Source: Halanaerobium congolense (lineage in GTDB: Bacteria > Bacillota > Halanaerobiia > Halanaerobiales > Halanaerobiaceae). From it: a stretch of DNA of 57,706 nucleotides. A model generated the notes under the pieces. The model was not told the DNA's origin and searched no databases. It was given only the letters and a program-made list of their open reading frames with translations. Of the stretch, positions 3,100 to 45,684 are shown piece by piece (position 1 is the stretch's first letter; each line of letters begins with the position of its first letter). A program made the translations under genes and the position numbers. The DNA is taken from NCBI RefSeq assembly GCF_004366375.1, contig NZ_SOEF01000020.1, forward strand, positions 1 to 57,706, written 5' to 3'.

Positions 3100-3489
3100 A
3101 TGTCAGCAAAAAAGAGGGTTTTAATAGCTAAATTAGGGCTTGATGGACATGATAGAGGGGCAAAAATTGTAGCTCGAGCTTTAAAAGAAGCCGGAATGGA
3201 GGTTATATATACAGGTCTCCGCAACACAGCTGAAGAAGTTGTAAGGACTGCTGTGCAGGAAGATGTAGACTTAATTGGAGTTAGTATTTTATCAGGCGCG
3301 CACAAAACTCTTGTTAAAAAATTATTTGAGAATATGGAAGCTGAAAATAATAGAACTATCCCAGTTGTTGTTGGAGGAATTATTCCTAAAGACGATTACA
3401 ATTATTTAAAAAAATTGGGTGTTACTAAAATATTTGGCAGCGGTAGTTCAATTAAAGAAATACTGAATTATGTGGAAGAATTAAGGTGA
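3100..3489 (+). CDS. Methylmalonyl-CoA mutase, cobalamin-binding (small/C-terminal) subunit
   Basis: This 129-residue protein is a free-standing B12-binding domain. LGLDGHDRG at residues 12-20 contains the DxHxxG motif whose His17 is the expected lower axial ligand to cobalt. It is followed by SILSGAH (about residues 63-69) and VVVGGIIP (about 88-95), which line the cofactor tail in the family. It would pair with the catalytic subunit encoded at 11607-13307 to interconvert succinyl-CoA and methylmalonyl-CoA. Split mutases are known in archaea and some anaerobic bacteria. The gene is first in its transcription unit and is followed 41 bases later by the mutase chaperone gene. The start is an ATG after AAAGGAG. 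Confidence 0.93.
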   Translation: MSAKKRVLIAKLGLDGHDRGAKIVARALKEAGMEVIYTGLRNTAEEVVRTAVQEDVDLIGVSILSGAHKTLVKKLFENMEAENNRTIPVVVGGIIPKDDYNYLKKLGVTKIFGSGSSIKEILNYVEELR

Positions 3490-3530
3490 ATTATAGTAAT
3501 TAAGTTTAAAAGGTGAAAGGAGGAAAAGGA

Positions 3531-4559
3531 TTGTCCGAGCAAATAAATGAACTGTTTCAGCAGTCTCAAAATGAGTTTATTGCTGCAGTTAGGGATGGCA
3601 GAGAACAAGAAATAGCAAGATCTATTTCACTTCTAGAAGATAAGTCTCCGTTAAGCAGAGAAATCATGAAGCAGCTTTATCAAAATTTTAATAAACCATA
3701 TATCATTGGAATTACAGGTCCAGCGGGTTCTGGGAAAAGTTCTCTGCTCAATCTAATGCTTAAAGAGTGGTTAAAAGAACCAGAATTAAAAATTGCAGTA
3801 ATTGCAGTTGATCCTACAAGTCAGCGGAGTGGAGGAGCTTTTTTAGGTGACAGAATAAGAATGAAAGATATTAATAATGATCAGCGTATATTCATTCGAA
3901 GTATGGCCAGCCGCGGGAAGATGGGTGGAGTTAACTCTGCTGTTTATGACACTGCAGTAATTATGGCAGCTGCCGGTTATGAAATGATTGTCATTGAAAC
4001 AGTTGGAGTTGGGCAGACAGAAATTGATGTAGTTAGTTTGGCTGATACTACTTTAGTTGTTACTGTGCCTGAAGCCGGAGATGAAATTCAAATTTTTAAA
4101 TCAGAATTAATGGAAGTAGGAGATATTTTTATCTTAAATAAAGATGATCTGCCTCGGGCAGCTAAAATGGAGGTGCTGCTTAAATCAAATTTTTCTCTAA
4201 TTGAAACAGAAAAGTTAAATAGAAAAAATGAGTATGAATCGAAAGGCAGCTGGCAGAGTGTTTTATTAAAAACTTCTGTTCTGAATAATCATGGGATAAA
4301 AGATTTAGTTAAAGCTGTAGAAAATCATTATAATTATTTAAGAAATAATAATATTTTGGAGCAAAATAAAAAACTGCAGTTAAAAAAACATTTATTAAAT
4401 TTACTGCAGTCAGAAATTTTAGAAAAGATCATTTTGGAATTTGATCAGGAAGATAAATTAGATAAATATTTAAGAGATATTTTAAGTGGAGAAGCATCTC
4501 CATATCAGTTAATTGAAGAATTTATCGATAAGAATTTAACGATCCAAGTTGACTTGTAG
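3531..4559 (+). CDS. meaB: Methylmalonyl-CoA mutase-associated GTPase MeaB (ArgK family)
   Basis: MeaB is a G3E GTPase that gates cobalamin loading and protects methylmalonyl-CoA mutase. The frame is open from a GTG at 3513, but an AAAGGAGG lies inside that extension. The TTG at 3531 is therefore the likely start, giving 342 residues. The P-loop GPAGSGKS is at residues 63-70, followed by DPTSQRSGGAFLGDR, the base-switch region VIETVGVGQTEIDV and the NKDD guanine-specificity motif. It sits between the mutase small subunit and the epimerase, which supports the function. Length and motif order are normal for the family. Confidence 0.93.
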   Translation: MSEQINELFQQSQNEFIAAVRDGREQEIARSISLLEDKSPLSREIMKQLYQNFNKPYIIGITGPAGSGKSSLLNLMLKEWLKEPELKIAVIAVDPTSQRSGGAFLGDRIRMKDINNDQRIFIRSMASRGKMGGVNSAVYDTAVIMAAAGYEMIVIETVGVGQTEIDVVSLADTTLVVTVPEAGDEIQIFKSELMEVGDIFILNKDDLPRAAKMEVLLKSNFSLIETEKLNRKNEYESKGSWQSVLLKTSVLNNHGIKDLVKAVENHYNYLRNNNILEQNKKLQLKKHLLNLLQSEILEKIILEFDQEDKLDKYLRDILSGEASPYQLIEEFIDKNLTIQVDL

Positions 4560-11048: not shown

Positions 11049-11620
11049 TGAGCAGATATGAAATCAGATTAAGCGGCGCCGGTGGTCAGGGAATGATTTT
11101 AGCTGGAATAATTCTAGCAGAATCAGGTGTTATGGTTGATGATTTAAATGTAAGCCAGAGCCAATCCTATGGACCTGAATCACGTGGAGGTGCAAGCAGA
11201 GCTGAAGTTGTTTTTGATGAAGATCAGATTGATTTCCCTAAAGTTATAAAACCTGATCTTTTAGTTTGCTTAACTCAGGAAGCTTTTAATCAGTATGGAG
11301 AAGATTTAAAAAATTATGGTGTTATAATTGCTGACAGCAGAATTGATACAACAAAATTAAAAGATAAACTAAAAAATAATCTTTATCAGCTTAATATTTT
11401 AGATCTGGCAGCAAATAAAATTGGAAAAGAAATTTCAGCTAATATGGTTGTATTAGGAATAATTGCTAAAATAATTCAAAAAAAAATACCTGTAGAATTT
11501 ATCAAAAAAGCAATCATAGAGAAAGTTCCACCACAAACAGTTGATGATAATATGGAGGCCTTTGAACTTGGTTTTCAATTAAAACTAGATAAAAGGAGTT
11601 ATGCTTATGGGAGAATATAA
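11048..11620 (+). CDS. korC: 2-oxoacid:ferredoxin oxidoreductase gamma subunit
   Basis: This 190-residue protein opens with [16 protein letters not shown] (residues 5-20), the CoA-binding-domain signature of gamma subunits, followed by SYGPESRGG (about 40-48). It completes the four-subunit enzyme. The reading frame ends 14 bases after the preferred start of the mutase large subunit, so korC and the mutase overlap. This physical link is the main sequence-level argument that the oxidoreductase supplies the mutase substrate, succinyl-CoA. Confidence 0.93.
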
Positions 11621-13307
11621 AAATGATAAACAGAACCAGAATAAGTTATCTGACTTAAAAAAAGCAGAAAAAAATTGGAAAGAAAACAAATATCAAAAAA
11701 CTGTTGACCGTTTTGGTTTAAGAAAAGATAAATTTTCATTTGATTCAGATAAAGAAGTAAAAGCATTATATACTCCTTTAGATTTAAAAAATATTGATTA
11801 TCAAAAAGATATTTCATTTCCGGGTGAATTTCCTTATACTCGAGGAGTTTATCCAACAATGTATCGCTCTCGTCTTTGGACAATGAGGCAGTATTCGGGT
11901 TATGGAACAGCTGAAGAAACAAATCAGCGTTTTAAATATCTTTTAGATCAAGGACAAACAGGACTGAGCGTGGCTTTTGATCTCCCAACCCAAATTGCTT
12001 ATGATTCTGATCATCCTTTAGCTGAAGGAGAAGTCGGTAGAGTAGGGGTAGCGATTGATAGTGTTGAAGATATGAAGAGGTTATTTGCAGATATTCCTTT
12101 AGATAAGGTTAGCACCTCAATGACTATTAATTCCCCTGCTGCTGTTATTCTAGCGATGTATATTGTTACTGCAGAAGAACAGGGGGTTGATCCTAAAAAC
12201 CTTACTGGAACTATCCAAAATGATATTTTAAAAGAATATATAGCCAGAGGTACTTATGTTTATCCGCCAGAAGAGTCTTTAAGATTAATAACTGATATAT
12301 TCGAGTACTGTTCAGAAGAAATGCCTGCATTTAATACTATTAGTATTAGTGGTTATCATATACGAGAAGCAGGTGCTACAGCACTTCAAGAGCTTGCATT
12401 TACTATAGCAGATGCAGTAGAATATGTAAAAGCAGCTTTAAAAATTGGACTGGATATTGATGATTTTGCACCTAGGCTGTCTTTTTTCTTTGCTTCTCAA
12501 ATGAATATTATGGAAGAAGCAGCAAAATTCAGGGCTGCTCGAAAACTATGGGCTGAAATAATGGAAGAATATTTTGATGCTAAAAAAGAAAAATCTAAAC
12601 TTTTACGATTTCATACTCAAACTGCAGGTACAGCATTAACTGCTGAACAACCCTTAAATAACATAATTCGAGTTACAATTCAATCATTAGCAGCAGTTTT
12701 AGGAGGAACTCAGTCACTGCACACAAACTCTTATGATGAGGCCCTTTCCCTACCGTCTGAAGAAGCGGTTGAAATTGCTTTAAGAACTCAGCAGATAATT
12801 GCAGAAGAAAGTGGGATTGCTGATGTAATTGATCCTTTGGGAGGCTCCTATTATTTAGAAGAACTGACAGCTTCATTTGTAGAAAGTACTAAAGAGTATC
12901 TAGAAAAAATTGATAAACTTGGAGGTATGGTTGAAGCTATTAAAGTTGGATATGTGCAGAAAGAAATACAGGATAGTGCTTATCAGAAGCAAAAGGAAAT
13001 TGATGAAGATAAGAAGATAGTTGTTGGGATAAATAAATACAGGTGGGGTCATCATAACGAAGAGATGGACTTACTTAAAGTTGATCCAAATTTGGAAAAG
13101 GCACAGAAAAAAAAGCTTAAAAAGTTAAAAAAAGAAAGAGATCAGCTGCTTGTGGAAAAAAAATTGTTGAAGATCAAAAATGCAGCTAAAGATGGAAACA
13201 ATTTGATGCCTCCAATTATTGAAGCTGTAAGGGCAAAAGCAACCCTAAATGAAATTAGTGATCAGATGCGTGAAGTTTTTGGAGAATATCAGAATAGGAA
13301 TATTTAA
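11607..13307 (+). CDS. Methylmalonyl-CoA mutase, catalytic (large/N-terminal) subunit
   Basis: This 566-residue TIM-barrel subunit has no B12 domain and must pair with the product of 3100-3489. Landmarks are [17 protein letters not shown] (about residues 83-99), [21 protein letters not shown] (about 200-220), [11 protein letters not shown] and TAEQPLNN. The Tyr in YPTMY and Arg in ARGTY are those I associate with methylmalonyl-CoA rather than isobutyryl-CoA mutases. An ATG at 11601 is only two bases from the GGAG and the ATG at 11607 eight bases, so 11607 is preferred. The last 60 residues are Lys rich. It ends the operon at a strong terminator. Confidence 0.93.
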
Positions 13308-40405: not shown

Positions 40406-40909
40406 CTAATTAATTCTTTTTTTGATTACAGGAGCTAAAATTAAGACAACAATTATTTTGAATAAGTCTCCTGGAATAAAGGGGAGTACAGTCATAGTAA
40501 AGGCGGCTATCAGGGGTGTTGAAGTTATGAAAGAAAAATAGAAAGAACCAATAATGTAATTACTTAGAACAGCAGCTATTAAAATCAAAAAATTTTTTTT
40601 CTTATCAGCAAAAGAATGAGCAGCTATCCAAGCTGCGGGTATGAAACTAATTAAAAATCCACCAGTTGGACCAAGTAAAACTCCAAGTCCACCTCGACCT
40701 CCAGAAAATATTGGTAATCCAAAAGCACCCAATAATAGATATGTAATTTGAGCAAGAACACCATATTTTTTACCCAGCAGCTTACCGGAAAGTAAAACAA
40801 AAAGAGTTTGTAAAGTTATAGGAACCGGGCCTATTGGAATTATCAGATAGGCAGAAATCGCTGTTAGAGCAGCAAATAAAGCTGATTTGATCATTTGATT
40901 AATTTTCAA
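40406..40909 (-). CDS. bioY: Biotin transporter BioY (ECF S component)
   Basis: This 167-residue membrane protein has about six helices. IIPIGPVPITLQTLFVLLSGKLLGKKYGVLAQITYLLLGAFGLPIFSGGRGGLGVLLGPTGGFL is the continuous BioY signature (quoted by motif: PVPITLQT, GLPIFSGG and GPTGGFL). It captures biotin and needs an ECF energising module or works alone. Biotin is required by the MmdC carrier in this window. The gene is divergent from ispE. The start is ATG at 40909; an upstream palindrome may be its operator. Confidence 0.93.
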   Translation of the reverse strand: MKINQMIKSALFAALTAISAYLIIPIGPVPITLQTLFVLLSGKLLGKKYGVLAQITYLLLGAFGLPIFSGGRGGLGVLLGPTGGFLISFIPAAWIAAHSFADKKKNFLILIAAVLSNYIIGSFYFSFITSTPLIAAFTMTVLPFIPGDLFKIIVVLILAPVIKKRIN

Positions 40910-42009: not shown

Positions 42010-42048
42010 TTTGCCAATAATTATTAGACTTTGGGAGCAGTGATTAGG

Positions 42049-42432
42049 ATGAAAGCGAAAAAAAATATTACCATGAAAGAAGCAAAAGAAAAAACAGGAT
42101 TGAGTTCACGACAGATTCGTTATTATGATCAGCAGGATTTGGTTTTTCCCGGACGCAGCAGGGGTAATCAGCGTCTTTTCTCTGAAAATGATATAGAAAG
42201 ATTGTTAAAAATCAAAGACCTTATTACTGCAGGAAATAGTATTGAAACAGTTAGATCAAAATTAAGGGCTCCTGAAACTCAAACCAATGGGCAGTATGAA
42301 TTTGATTATGAAAATGAATTTGATTATTCAGATGTGAAGTTAGATTCTCTTTTTCCTGTTTCAAACCGTTCTGAACTAATTAAAAGGCTTTCCCGAAGTA
42401 ACAGTAAAGGATTTAAAGAGGAGGAAGAATAA
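42049..42432 (+). CDS. glnR: GlnR-type MerR-family regulator
   Basis: This 127-residue protein has an N-terminal winged HTH of the MerR family: [51 protein letters not shown]. The remaining tail is acidic and has KLDSLFPVSNRSELIKRL, similar to the GlnR/TnrA C-terminal segment that contacts glutamine synthetase. It lies directly before glnA, as in Bacillus, and would repress the operon when nitrogen is plentiful. ATG 42049 is preferred to GTG 42040, which is only two bases from GGGAG. Confidence 0.85.
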   Translation: MKAKKNITMKEAKEKTGLSSRQIRYYDQQDLVFPGRSRGNQRLFSENDIERLLKIKDLITAGNSIETVRSKLRAPETQTNGQYEFDYENEFDYSDVKLDSLFPVSNRSELIKRLSRSNSKGFKEEEE

Positions 42433-43764
42433 GTGGAAAAGTATAGTAGAGAGAAGATTTTGCAGTTAGCTGATGAAAAAAATGTTGAGTTTATTAGGCT
42501 GCAGTTTGTGGATATTTTAGGTATTATAAAGAATGTTGCAATTACAATTGAACAGCTCCCGGAAGCACTTGATGGTAAGATTATGTTTGATGGTTCTTCT
42601 ATTGAAGGGTATACACGTATTCATGAATCTGATATGTACCTTAAACCAGATTATGATACATTTGCAATTTTTCCCTGGGAAACTAGTGGGGGCTGTACTG
42701 CAAGAATGATGTGTGATATTTATTTACCGAATGGTGAACCTTTTGTTGGTTGTCCTAGAGGTACTTTGAAAAGAGCAATAGCAGAAGCTAAAGAAATCGG
42801 TTATGATATGTTTGCTGGCCCTGAGCCAGAATTTTTCTTATTTGAAAAAGATAAAGATGGTGATCCTACGACTAATACCCATGATAAAGGAGGATATTTT
42901 GATCTTTCTCCAGTTGATTTAGGTGGTGAAGCACGTCGTGATACAGTTTTAGCTCTCAAAAAAATGGGCTTTGAAGTAGAGGCTGCTCATCATGAAGTTG
43001 CACCCGGGCAGCATGAAATTGATTTTAAATATACTCCTGCCTTAAGAACAGCTGATAATATAGCAACTTTTAAATTTGTAACTAAAATTATAGCATTACA
43101 GCATAATTTACATGCTACTTTTATGCCAAAGCCAATATATGGTGAAAGTGGTTCTGGAATGCATGTTCATCAATCATTATATAAAGATGGGAAAAATGCT
43201 TTTTATGATCCAAATGATGAATTTGGTTTAAGTGAAATTGCATATTATTACATAGGTGGATTATTAAAACATGCTAAAGAAACTACAGCAATTTTAAATC
43301 CTACTATTAATTCATATAAGAGGTTAGTTCCTGGTTATGAGGCTCCTGTTTATATTTCATGGTCGACTCAAAACCGCAGTGCTTTAGTTAGAGTGCCATC
43401 TGCTAGAGGTAATGGAACTCGTCTAGAACTTAGAAATCCTGATCCTGCAGCAAATCCGTATTTGGCAACTGCAGTAATGCTTAGAGCTGGTTTAGATGGA
43501 ATTAAAAACAAAATAGACCCAGGCGAGCAGACAACTGATAATATTTATGAAATGAGTTATAAAGAAAGAAAAGCAAGAGGAATTAATAGCCTTCCAGCTT
43601 CTATGGAAGAGGCTCTTAAATATTTCCAGGAAAGTAAATTTATGAGGGAATCTCTTGGGAAGCACATCTTTAATCATCTTGTTAAAGCAAAGCGAATTGA
43701 GTGGTCAATTTATAAAAAACAGGTTCACAACTGGGAAATTGATCAGTATTTAAGTACATATTAA
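42433..43764 (+). CDS. glnA: Glutamine synthetase type I
   Basis: This 443-residue enzyme makes glutamine from glutamate, ammonia and ATP. Signatures are FDGSSIEGYTRIHESDMYLKPD (about residues 53-74), the catalytic GPEPEFFLF, HHEVAPGQHEID, SGSGMHVHQSL and NPTINSYKRLVPGYEAPVYISW. There is no adenylylation tyrosine motif of the beta subtype, so it is probably GSI-alpha controlled by feedback and GlnR. GTG 42433 follows GAGGAGGAAG and directly abuts the glnR stop. Confidence 0.96.
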   Translation: MEKYSREKILQLADEKNVEFIRLQFVDILGIIKNVAITIEQLPEALDGKIMFDGSSIEGYTRIHESDMYLKPDYDTFAIFPWETSGGCTARMMCDIYLPNGEPFVGCPRGTLKRAIAEAKEIGYDMFAGPEPEFFLFEKDKDGDPTTNTHDKGGYFDLSPVDLGGEARRDTVLALKKMGFEVEAAHHEVAPGQHEIDFKYTPALRTADNIATFKFVTKIIALQHNLHATFMPKPIYGESGSGMHVHQSLYKDGKNAFYDPNDEFGLSEIAYYYIGGLLKHAKETTAILNPTINSYKRLVPGYEAPVYISWSTQNRSALVRVPSARGNGTRLELRNPDPAANPYLATAVMLRAGLDGIKNKIDPGEQTTDNIYEMSYKERKARGINSLPASMEEALKYFQESKFMRESLGKHIFNHLVKAKRIEWSIYKKQVHNWEIDQYLSTY

Positions 43765-43788: not shown

Positions 43789-44325
43789 ATGGAAGGTAGA
43801 GAAAATATACAAGAGCATTTAAAAAAAATTAAATTACGAAGTTTAGATACCAGATCATTATCGTTTTTAGCTCTGTTTATTGCTTTTACTGCTGTAGCAA
43901 CATATCTACATATTCCTAGCCCCAGCAGTTCGTATTTTAACCTGGGTGAGGTGGCAATTTATACAATCGCCTTAACTTTTGGAGCTAAGGCTGGCGGGAT
44001 TGCTGGTGGATTTGGTTCTGCATTAATGGATATAATTTTAGGTTATTCAATCTGGGCTCCTTTCACTTTTGTAATCAAGGGCTTAGAGGGTTTACTGGTT
44101 GGTAAAATTGCAAGCCAAGATAAAGAACAAAAAATTGATAGAAAGATTTTTGCAATAATTGTTGGTGGGAATGTGATGATTATTGGTTATGCTCTGGCAA
44201 AAGCGTTTTTGTTGAGTTGGGCAGTTGTGCTGCCTGAAATTGGAATAGATTTTGCTCAAATGCTGATCGGTGGAGTTCTAGCGATTCCGCTATCTCACCA
44301 CCTTGATAATTATTTTAGGAAGTGA
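43789..44325 (+). CDS. ECF transporter S component (substrate unknown)
   Basis: This 178-residue membrane protein has about five to six helices. FNLGEVAIYTIALTFGAKAGGIAGGFGSALMDIILGYSIWAPFTFVIKGLEGLLVGK (recognised by FNLGE, GGIAGGFGSALMD and KGLEGLLVG) is typical of S components of the DUF1393/ECF-ribofla group. The substrate is a vitamin-like molecule that cannot be told by sequence. It lies 24 bases after glnA and five bases before an AIR-synthase-like gene. No EcfA/EcfT genes are in the window. Confidence 0.87.
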   Translation: MEGRENIQEHLKKIKLRSLDTRSLSFLALFIAFTAVATYLHIPSPSSSYFNLGEVAIYTIALTFGAKAGGIAGGFGSALMDIILGYSIWAPFTFVIKGLEGLLVGKIASQDKEQKIDRKIFAIIVGGNVMIIGYALAKAFLLSWAVVLPEIGIDFAQMLIGGVLAIPLSHHLDNYFRK

Positions 44326-44329
44326 TATT

Positions 44330-45331
44330 TTGGAAATTGGTAAATTAGCAGGAAATAATTTAAAAAAAGTAATATTAAATAAAATTGATCATTTTAGGTC
44401 AGATGTTTTAATACCTGCAGGTGAAGGAGAAGACAGTGCCGTAGTTGATTTAGGGGATTCATTGTTAGTTGTATCATCTGATCCAATAACAGGTGCAGAA
44501 AAAAATGCTGGTTTTATTGCAGTTAATGTATCTTGTAATGATATAGCAGCAGCTGGAGCTGAGCCTTTTGGTATTCAGGTGGTTTTTTTATTACCTCCTA
44601 GTTTAGGTGAAGACAAAGCAGAAAAGCTAATGCAGGAAATTGTTGAAACTGCTAAAGCAATGGACATTGAAGTTTTAGGCGGCCATACTGAAATTACTGA
44701 CCTTGTTCAAAAACCAATAATTACAGTGACGGCCTTAGGGAAAGCAGTCAAAGAGGAATTAACTTCTAGTGCATCTGCTGAAGTTGGTGATCGTCTATAT
44801 ATTACAAAAGGAATGGGGATCGAAGGCTGTTATATTTTAGCTAATGATTATGAAGATTATTTGCTTGACCATGGTGTGAGTAAAGATTCTATAGGTAAAG
44901 CATCTAACTATTTAAATCTTTTAAGTGTTATTCCCGAAAGCAGGATAGCTAGAAAAAATGGAGTTAAAGCTATGCATGATGTGACTGAAGGTGGAGTATA
45001 TGGTGCTGTTGCTGAAATGGCATCAGCTTCTGGACTTGGGTATGTAATTGAAGCAGATAAATTTCAGGTGAAAGATGAAATAGCTGATATCTGTAAAAAT
45101 TTAAATATTGATCCAGCTGGTTTAATTTCTTCAGGTGCAATGTTAATTGCAGCTGCTTCAGACAATGATTTAGAATCAATATTTGCTGAAAAAGGAATTC
45201 AATTAATCGAAGTTGGCAGAATTATTGAAAAAGGGAGTTATATCGAGAAAAATAGAGCAATGGAAGAATTTTCTTTACCAGCCGAGGATGAGCTTTGGAA
45301 ATTTATTAAAAAAATCACAAATAACTCTTGA
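44330..45331 (+). CDS. AIR synthase-related (PurM/HypE/ThiL-like) protein
   Basis: This 333-residue cytosolic protein has the PurM-superfamily layout: an N-terminal domain with AGEGEDSAVVDLGDSLLVVSSDPITGAE, VNVSCNDIAAAGAEPFGIQVVFLLP and EVLGGHTEITD, then a C-terminal domain with MHDVTEGGVYGAVAEMA. Such enzymes use ATP to activate an amide or make an acyl phosphate. It is not PurM, HypE or ThiL in close detail. Pairing with an ECF S component suggests the imported compound is its substrate or cofactor precursor. TTG 44330 follows AGGAAG; the 3' end contains the spoVG -35 box. Confidence 0.85.
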   Translation: MEIGKLAGNNLKKVILNKIDHFRSDVLIPAGEGEDSAVVDLGDSLLVVSSDPITGAEKNAGFIAVNVSCNDIAAAGAEPFGIQVVFLLPPSLGEDKAEKLMQEIVETAKAMDIEVLGGHTEITDLVQKPIITVTALGKAVKEELTSSASAEVGDRLYITKGMGIEGCYILANDYEDYLLDHGVSKDSIGKASNYLNLLSVIPESRIARKNGVKAMHDVTEGGVYGAVAEMASASGLGYVIEADKFQVKDEIADICKNLNIDPAGLISSGAMLIAAASDNDLESIFAEKGIQLIEVGRIIEKGSYIEKNRAMEEFSLPAEDELWKFIKKITNNS

Positions 45332-45390: not shown

Positions 45391-45654
45391 ATGGAAATTA
45401 CAGATGTTAGAGTTTTCCCAGTCAATATTAATGGAAGTTTGGTCAAGGCTTATGCTACGGTGACTTTTGATGATGCTTTTGTGATTCGTGAAATGCGGGT
45501 GGTTGAAGGAAAAAACGGAACTTTCCTGTCTATGCCTGCACGAAGAAAAAGGAATGGAAACTATCAAGATATCTGTTTCCCAATTTCCACTAAGTTAAGA
45601 GATCTAATAGAAAACGAGGTTTTAGAAAAGTTTAATGAGTTATTAGAAACTGCT
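45391..45654 (+). CDS. spoVG: SpoVG RNA-binding regulator
   Basis: From the ATG at 45391, after AAAGGCGGTG, this is an 88-residue protein; the stop codon is at 45655-45657. MEITDVRVFPVN, KAYATVTFDDAFVIREMRVVEG and LSMPARRKRNGNYQDICFPIS cover the SpoVG family almost end to end. SpoVG binds RNA and DNA and tunes many genes in bacteria, including non-sporulating ones. It precedes glmU exactly as in Bacillus. It has its own promoter and terminator. Confidence 0.95.
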
Positions 45655-45684
45655 TAATTATAAAATATATCAAATACTTTATAA

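What the first reader, a model, noticed from the sequence alone, without database searches (positions are those of the whole stretch)
43789..45331. ECF S component paired with an AIR-synthase-like enzyme
The two genes are five bases apart and follow glnA. The enzyme belongs to the PurM/HypE/ThiL superfamily but to none of these closely, and the S component has no assigned ligand. Together they look like uptake plus ATP-dependent activation of an unknown cofactor precursor.
Basis: inference. Interest (0 to 1): 0.55.

Follow-up and report, generated by a model that had tools for sequence, protein, structure and literature searches.

The report
Vitamin-B6 importer plus orphan ATP enzyme
Two neighbouring genes in a salt-loving fermenting bacterium look like the binding part of a vitamin-B6 importer and an uncharacterised ATP-using enzyme that probably acts on what it brings in; the importer part is fairly well supported, the enzyme's job is still a guess.

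Summary
The two genes are real, intact and 4 nt apart, behind glnA. S (43789-44325) is an ECF S component; E (44330-45331) is a complete PurM-superfamily protein that falls below every curated HypE, SelD, ThiL, PurL or sll0787 cut-off. Both occur in 45 of 61 related genomes and are adjacent in 40 of those 45, in several different surroundings.

The obvious known match, CblT/CblS (alpha-ribazole uptake plus AIRS-type kinase), is excluded: a CblTS pair coexists with S-E in one relative, the profiles do not match, and the window's genome lacks CobS and CobT. E is not a substitute for ThiL or HypE.

S belongs to the PdxU2/HmpT vitamin-B6 group: its nearest solved structure (4hzu_S) was reported to bind pyridoxamine. 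Close S relatives stand beside PdxR regulators, one beside a pyridoxamine kinase. One S-E operon carries an FMN-riboswitch-like leader of an altered type that elsewhere precedes pdxST, not riboflavin genes. A pocket signature in S predicts pairing with E.

Best reading: B6-vitamer uptake plus ATP-dependent handling by a new, non-orthologous B6 enzyme (possibly a kinase). E's role is inferred; E is commoner than S, and some S genes have no E. Side result: a candidate B6-linked riboswitch class.

The parts
42031..42432 (+). MerR-type regulator (GlnR-like); upstream neighbour, probably the same operon
   Evidence: PF13411 62 bits; also upstream of glnA in several relatives
42433..43764 (+). glnA, glutamine synthetase; ends 24 nt before S
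   Evidence: ORF; glnA-S-E order in Halanaerobiales relatives; gap. Named from the sequence; glnA itself was not run against a family library
43789..44325 (+). S: ECF transporter S component of the PdxU2/HmpT (PF07155) group, predicted vitamin-B6 vitamer binder; pocket E54 W89 K97 E100 Y134 E150 D154 Q157
44330..45331 (+). E: PurM-superfamily (AIRS + AIRS_C) ATP-using enzyme of a clostridial family without a name, TTG start; candidate B6-vitamer kinase
45391..45657 (+). spoVG, downstream neighbour
   Evidence: PF04026 102 bits; glnA-S-E-spoVG order in relatives

Best explanation
S is the substrate-binding part of a group II ECF importer for a vitamin-B6 vitamer (pyridoxamine, pyridoxal or pyridoxine), working with a shared EcfA/A'/T module elsewhere in the genome (module not looked for here). 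E is an ATP-dependent PurM-superfamily enzyme probably translated from the same message; it most likely phosphorylates or otherwise activates the imported vitamer, as PdxK does beside PdxU in other Firmicutes and as CblS does beside CblT. Shown by computation: the pair, its conservation, S's kinship with HmpT/PdxU2, the B6-type regulation of S relatives, and the PurM-type fold of E. Inferred: the exact vitamer, and everything about E's reaction.
For: S: the only sequence match in the PDB is 4hzu_S (2.7e-18; 7.9e-32 with the S profile) and the best fold match is the same chain (E 1.2e-7, TM 0.82; FolT and RibU about 1e-3). That protein (HmpT/PdxU2) was reported to carry pyridoxamine by mass spectrometry (PMC4860826, passages). 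Of its eight named pocket residues S keeps E41, W76, Y120 and Q143. S orthologues of the window type that left the E locus in two relatives (L039, L059; 55-56% identical) are divergent from a MocR-type gene; L039's is PdxR over cut-off (363 against 320). In 80 S proteins from the phylum, 10 have this regulator divergent; of these L301 and L294 were tested and are PdxR over cut-off, and in L335 S lies right behind a pyridoxamine kinase over cut-off (316 against 231). The S-E operon of G033 is led by an FMN-riboswitch-like element (106 bits) of an altered type; of 73 FMN-type matches read, 3 of 3 altered ones precede pdxS (2) or S-E (1), and 68 of 70 ordinary ones precede riboflavin genes, 2 unassigned. 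Pairing follows the S pocket: 12 of 13 S with Glu54+Glu150 have E downstream, 0 of 67 others do; on the S tree pairing needs 6 changes against 29.3 for shuffled labels, 0 of 500 as low. Every PdxS-lacking genome of at least 90% completeness has S (15 of 15).
Against: Nothing ties E directly to B6 except sharing an operon with S; only 1 S-E locus has the B6-type leader and none has PdxR. E is much commoner than S in Clostridia; three genomes of at least 95% completeness have E and PdxS but no S (G016, G046, G055). One genus (G018, G021, G024, G027) lacks both PdxS and E but keeps S, so E is not needed for salvage there. E presence does not track PdxS (Fisher p = 1.0), and S against PdxS is not significant either (p = 0.16). 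The pocket differs from HmpT at H84>K, Q87>E, S136>E and N140>D, so the vitamer may differ. Eight E-paired S do not carry the Glu54+Glu150 signature. One S relative is followed by CobT (L303). Whether E-bearing genomes also have an ordinary pyridoxal kinase was not tested.
Confidence: 0.45

Rival explanations
1. S is a B6-vitamer importer, but E does an unrelated job that many Clostridia need; the two were brought together by chance or for co-regulation and stayed.
For: E is widespread without S; S occurs without E in one genus and E without S in G016, G046, G055; E shows no link to PdxS.
Against: S-E adjacency recurs in quite different surroundings (glnA/spoVG; rsmA/veg; beside serS; others), with gaps of -38 to 126 nt in 42 of the 44 same-strand pairs listed (that list includes a few duplicate loci), and pairing follows S's pocket residues.
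Confidence: 0.3
2. E-type S binds a related but different, more basic molecule, and E acts on that one. The pocket of E-paired S is more acidic than HmpT's (Glu100, Glu150, Asp154).
For: Pocket signature of E-paired S.
Against: A MocR/PdxR-type regulator stands beside two E-type S (L039, L059) and the pdxST-type leader before a third (L072).
Confidence: 0.13
3. S is a riboflavin or flavin importer and E a flavin enzyme.
For: Pfam's name for PF07155; FMN-type leader in G033.
Against: The leader is of an altered type that precedes pdxST, not riboflavin genes. The window's genome has a separate S component behind an ordinary FMN riboswitch (C1:61903-62403), and G033 has its own RibU-like gene behind an ordinary one (L199).
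Confidence: 0.06
4. The pair is CblT-CblS, alpha-ribazole importer and kinase.
For: Same architecture: ECF S gene next to an AIRS-type gene.
Against: The window's genome (99.9% complete) has no CobS and no CobT match. G058 has both a CblTS-like pair beside CobS (L174) and a separate S-E pair (L231). CblT scores 8-13 bits on the S profile and CblS from -0.5 to 18 on the E profile; the CblS homologue of G058 has the AIRS N domain only.
Confidence: 0.02
5. E replaces ThiL, HypE or SelD.
For: Nearest folds are HypE, SelD and ThiL; the window's genome has no ThiL match over cut-off, and its four AIRS_C genes read as PurM, PurL, SelD and E.
Against: 8 of the 11 genomes with ThiL over cut-off also have E, and E genomes without ThiL have TPK with few exceptions such as G015. 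The conserved C-terminal Cys of HypE (recalled) is absent in 27 of 29 E, and no Cys lies in the first 25 residues of any of 29, as SelD catalysis would need (recalled). SelD is present separately (L222).
Confidence: 0.04

Closest known systems
HmpT/PdxU2 of Levilactobacillus brevis (4hzu_S), pyridoxamine S component
   Same: Family, fold (TM 0.82), and four of eight named pocket residues
   Different: Four pocket residues changed (H>K, Q>E, S>E, N>D); paired with E
CblT-CblS, alpha-ribazole importer and kinase (Listeria, Lactobacillaceae)
   Same: ECF S component next to an AIR-synthase-type enzyme: the same working plan
   Different: Neither protein belongs to the same family; CblS lacks the AIRS_C domain and lies beside cob genes
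PdxR-PdxK-PdxU of streptococci (PMC11619246, seen only in a search listing)
   Same: B6 S component coupled to an ATP-dependent enzyme
   Different: PdxK is of the ribokinase/ThiD fold (recalled); E is of the PurM fold
HypE / SelD / ThiL
   Same: PurM fold; nearest solved structures of E (TM about 0.6-0.8)
   Different: About 16-25% identity; below all curated cut-offs; no HypE C-terminal Cys or SelD N-terminal Cys in the family as a rule

Membership tests
PF07155 / PdxU2-HmpT vitamin-B6 S components | PF07155 profile over its gathering score | tested here: met
   134.3 against 26.7 bits
PF07155 / PdxU2-HmpT vitamin-B6 S components | Closest to HmpT among solved S components, by sequence and fold | tested here: met
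PF07155 / PdxU2-HmpT vitamin-B6 S components | Ligand-contact residues of HmpT conserved | tested here: inconclusive
   4 of 8 kept (E41, W76, Y120, Q143), 4 changed
PF07155 / PdxU2-HmpT vitamin-B6 S components | Binds a B6 vitamer | not testable with these tools
   -
group II ECF transporter | Shared EcfA/A'/T module in the genome | not tested
CblT-CblS | Sequence family of CblT and of CblS | tested here: not met
CblT-CblS | Genome can use alpha-ribazole phosphate (CobS present) | tested here: not met
   G000 has no CobS match
PurM (AIRS) superfamily | AIRS and AIRS_C domains over cut-off, PurM-type fold | tested here: met
HypE | NCBIfam hypE cut-off; C-terminal Cys (recalled) | tested here: not met
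   94.5 against 251.6 bits; Cys near the C-terminus in 2 of 29
ThiL | NCBIfam thiL cut-off | tested here: not met
   81.8 against 184 bits
SelD | NCBIfam selD cut-off; N-terminal Cys/Sec (recalled) | tested here: not met
   86.2 against 125 bits; no Cys in the first 25 residues of 29
pyridoxal/pyridoxamine kinase | ATP-dependent phosphorylation of a B6 vitamer | not testable with these tools
   No known kinase family other than PurM-fold ones matches E; function by position only

The most novel reading that the evidence does not exclude
E is a new structural class of vitamin-B6 kinase (PurM fold instead of ribokinase fold), and the FMN-riboswitch-like leaders before S, S-E and pdxST form a riboswitch class that senses a B6 compound, perhaps PLP, for which two reviews of 2022 state that no riboswitch is known.
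Probability: 0.18. Interest if true: 0.88.

Novelty: new variant of a known kind. Interest (0 to 1): 0.58.

Why it matters
If right, a whole enzyme family of Clostridia and Halanaerobiia that databases can only call 'AIR synthase-like' gets a testable pathway, vitamin B6, and a second example, independent of CblT-CblS, of an ECF S component served by a PurM-fold enzyme. The altered FMN-type leaders give a direct handle on the open question whether any riboswitch senses vitamin B6.

Tried and rejected
Alpha-ribazole (CblTS): rejected by profile, by coexistence in G058 and by the lack of CobS/CobT in the window's genome. ThiL replacement: ThiL, ThiE and TPK profiles give no gap that E would fill. 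HypE/SelD: below cut-off, residues absent. Riboflavin: the altered leader and separate RibU-like genes speak against it. Gene neighbours of E in the 80 best named loci (Pfam of 20 neighbour clusters) gave backbone genes only (VanW, Lrp, aminotransferase, SpoU, accAD/pfk/pyk, rdgB and others); one recurrent neighbour, an F420-ligase-like gene in 6 loci, was not followed. Profile test of S or E against PdxS: not significant. nhmmer hits for FMN-like leaders were checked against Rfam: L257, L260 and L265 lie just under the gathering score (64.0-65.8 against 66.2). Searches for prior reports of the pair or of a B6 riboswitch; none of the listings describes the S-E pair. Atilho 2019 and Weinberg 2017 on FMN-riboswitch variants are not held, so I cannot exclude that the altered leaders are among theirs.

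Dropped rows: and the tree identical sequences were kept once; the tree also left out nine loci that repeat or nearly repeat genomes already in it, and S proteins under 150 or over 260 aa. My ORF caller found no S in a few of the 80 phylum loci (for example L263, L291, L307, L331) and several in L286 and L326; the count is 80 S proteins. L264/L126, L277/L097 and L281/L124 look like the same loci reached twice. Of 91 FMN matches, 73 were read (18 not fetched). Of 140 genomes with S, 80 regions from 78 genomes were fetched. In one search one of the E loci (L092, a duplicate of L072) was left out.

Full report
OBSERVATION. S is 43789-44325 and E, from a TTG at 44330, ends at 45331; the gap is 4 nt and glnA ends 24 nt upstream. 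S has PF07155 over cut-off, E has AIRS and AIRS_C over cut-off; E is below the cut-off of every one of the 19 NCBIfam models it touches. The window is a 57.7-kb contig of a 2.83-Mb draft genome, 99.9% complete; a closely similar gene order belongs to Halanaerobium saccharolyticum (L089).

CONSERVATION. In the window's genome and 60 relatives, S occurs in 50 and E in 50 (true E orthologues, at least 246 bits; weaker matches are taken as other members of the superfamily), both in 45, and in 40 of the 45 they are adjacent on one strand (counted in 136). The surroundings differ: glnA-S-E-spoVG in Halanaerobiales, rsmA-x-S-E-veg and others elsewhere. In named genomes E is a common clostridial gene, mostly without S: 12 of 80 loci have S next to E. 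In 398 genomes of the phylum, 140 have an S-like gene; of 80 S proteins read, 12 have E downstream on the same strand (one of them with a gene between) and one has E converging.

WHAT E IS NOT. The known arrangement of an ECF S gene with an AIRS-type gene is CblT-CblS (Gray and Escalante-Semerena 2010, not held; cited in PMC5064896, PMC6167548, PMC6461909 and PMC6722938, of which passages were read). I recovered examples: plasmid pMF1298-5, whose paper names its CblT-CblS-CobS-CobC operon, and homologues in a Listeria and a Cytobacillus record. The CblS homologue of G058 has only the AIRS N domain; four CblS score -0.5 to 18 bits on the E profile and three CblT score 8-13 bits on the S profile. 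G058 carries such a pair beside CobS (L174) and, elsewhere, S-E (L231). The window's genome has neither CobS nor CobT. So the window pair is not CblTS, though it may work on the same plan. ThiL over cut-off is in 11 of 61 genomes, 8 of which also have E; TPK is over cut-off in 60 of 61 (in a few only as a partial match), ThiE in 40 of 61. The four AIRS_C genes of the window's genome read as PurM, PurL, SelD and E (PurM and PurL by length and score, SelD by reading the sequence). E's model (pLDDT 91.6) is nearest HypE, then SelD and ThiL, at roughly 16-25% identity.

S AND VITAMIN B6. The only PDB sequence match of S alone is 4hzu_S, HmpT/PdxU2 of L. brevis; fold search agrees (model pLDDT 90.6; E 1.2e-7, TM 0.82, next FolT and RibU near 1e-3). 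HmpT was reported to hold pyridoxamine by mass spectrometry, with contacts E41, W76, H84, Q87, Y120, S136, N140, Q143 (PMC4860826, passages); PMC9997740 (passages) lists PdxU and PdxU2/HmpT, PF07155, as B6 transporters. The window's S has E54, W89, K97, E100, Y134, E150, D154, Q157 at these places. Ten of the 80 phylum S proteins are divergent from a MocR-type regulator; two of these ten were scanned and are PdxR over cut-off (L301, L294), as is the regulator beside S in L039, where a window-type S has left E behind (glnA-E-spoVG remains in L040). In L335 S lies right behind a pyridoxamine kinase over cut-off; in L286 and L050 S lies beside an aminotransferase whose best NCBIfam model is pyridoxamine-pyruvate transaminase, but below its cut-off (288.6 and 263.7 against 600). 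One S is followed by CobT (L303), which does not fit the B6 reading.

A LEADER RNA. Rfam finds an FMN-type element directly before S-E in G033 (106 bits) and before S without E in L256, L258, L273, L286 and L334, with weaker ones in L257, L260, L265 and by nhmmer in L276, L312, L322. In L286 the aminotransferase lies between leader and S. These elements share an altered core: nCA in place of nCGA, a fixed CAGCCYCA stretch, and changes at some of the places that (recalled numbering of the F. nucleatum aptamer, G47, A85, G98, A99) contact or frame the flavin; all 14 listed carry the nCA change (L286, L265 and L260 read from the alignment). The same altered element lies before pdxS in G022, which has neither S nor E, and in G059. 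As a check not chosen by gene, 73 of the 91 FMN matches were read: 3 altered ones precede pdxS, pdxS and S-E; of 70 ordinary ones 68 precede ribD, ribU or ribBA and 2 were not assigned (Fisher p = 1.6e-4 with the two counted against). A covariance model from 12 altered elements finds 11 in the 80 phylum S loci, ten of them its own members and one new (L276), and none in the 20 relatives' loci given with them; one in L072, a member, and none in the window or in any other S-E or E locus given; and 2 of 30 pdxS loci, where L339 was not in the model. The two held-out elements score 120.7 and 121.6 bits, the eight ordinary FMN elements 49-86. PMC4418817 (passages) had noted an FMN riboswitch before the PLP synthase operon of Thermaerobacter. 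Two reviews of 2022 (PMC10043782, PMC9971707, passages) state that no pyridoxal-phosphate riboswitch is known. FMN variants with other ligands are known (Atilho 2019, not held; described in PMC11477304, passages: subtype 2 binds lumichrome and lumiflavin and controls an efflux gene). Whether the present elements belong to a described subtype I could not check. Their ligand is unknown.

PAIRING FOLLOWS THE POCKET. In the phylum set 12 of 13 S with Glu54 and Glu150 are paired with E and 0 of 67 others are (Fisher 2e-13, ignoring kinship). In all loci together 29 of 37 such S are paired and 8 of 81 others (near-relatives included); on the tree seven of these eight that were kept form a second clade. 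On the S tree pairing needs 6 changes against 29.3 for shuffled labels. The eight unpaired S with the signature are four of one genus and one further genome that lack E, the two PdxR-linked S, and L325.

AGAINST. E is commoner than S; S without E exists in genomes that also lack PdxS (G018, G021, G024, G027); E with PdxS but no S exists (G016, G046, G055); profiles of E and PdxS are independent (p = 1.0) and that of S and PdxS is only suggestive (15 of 15 PdxS-lacking genomes of at least 90% completeness have S, p = 0.16). The window's genome has PdxS with a MocR-like gene divergent from it (L350), so S-E is not its only B6 source. No E gene was seen next to PdxR.

VERDICT. S as a B6-vitamer S component: about 0.75. 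E acting on what S brings in: about 0.55. E as a B6 kinase of a new fold class: about 0.35. Together the best explanation stands at 0.45.

Noticed in passing
L341:1027-1164 (+), L339:2438-2645 (-), L072:1797-1929 (+), and 11 S loci: FMN-riboswitch-like leaders with an altered core before pdxST and B6-type ECF S genes; candidate B6-linked riboswitch class, ligand unknown.
   Followed up: partly
window 3100-3489, 3513-4559, 11601-13307: Genes that read as a B12-dependent methylmalonyl-CoA mutase and its chaperone in a genome with no CobS and no CobT match, so the cobamide must come from outside.
   Followed up: no
window 40406-40909 (-): BioY, a second ECF S component, 3 kb upstream of S.
   Followed up: no
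L222:5348-6334 (-): SelD-like gene next to a TusA/YedF-like gene in the window's genome, which has no HypE-type or ThiL-type gene over cut-off.
   Followed up: no
L174:2255-3457 (+): A CblT-CblS-like pair beside CobS in a relative without a CobT match, separate from its S-E pair.
   Followed up: yes
L326 (G422:C20:600-18200): Four S-type genes alternating with three class V aminotransferase genes in one cluster, followed by ABC ATPase genes.
   Followed up: no
L098, L104, L105, L118, L131, L159: An F420-0:gamma-glutamyl-ligase-like gene directly downstream of E in six loci.
   Followed up: no
L303:4019-5670 (+): An S-type gene followed by CobT, which suggests that not every member of this S family serves B6.
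   Followed up: no
L268, L270, L283, L298: S between a class II aldolase and an isocitrate/isopropylmalate-dehydrogenase-like gene; unknown pathway.
   Followed up: no
L126:8475-9071 (-): OLE RNA (405 bits) beside an S-x-E locus.
   Followed up: no
L241 (Haloferax plasmid): An E relative (32% identity) beside cobyrinic acid a,c-diamide synthase and a cobalamin adenosyltransferase gene.
   Followed up: no
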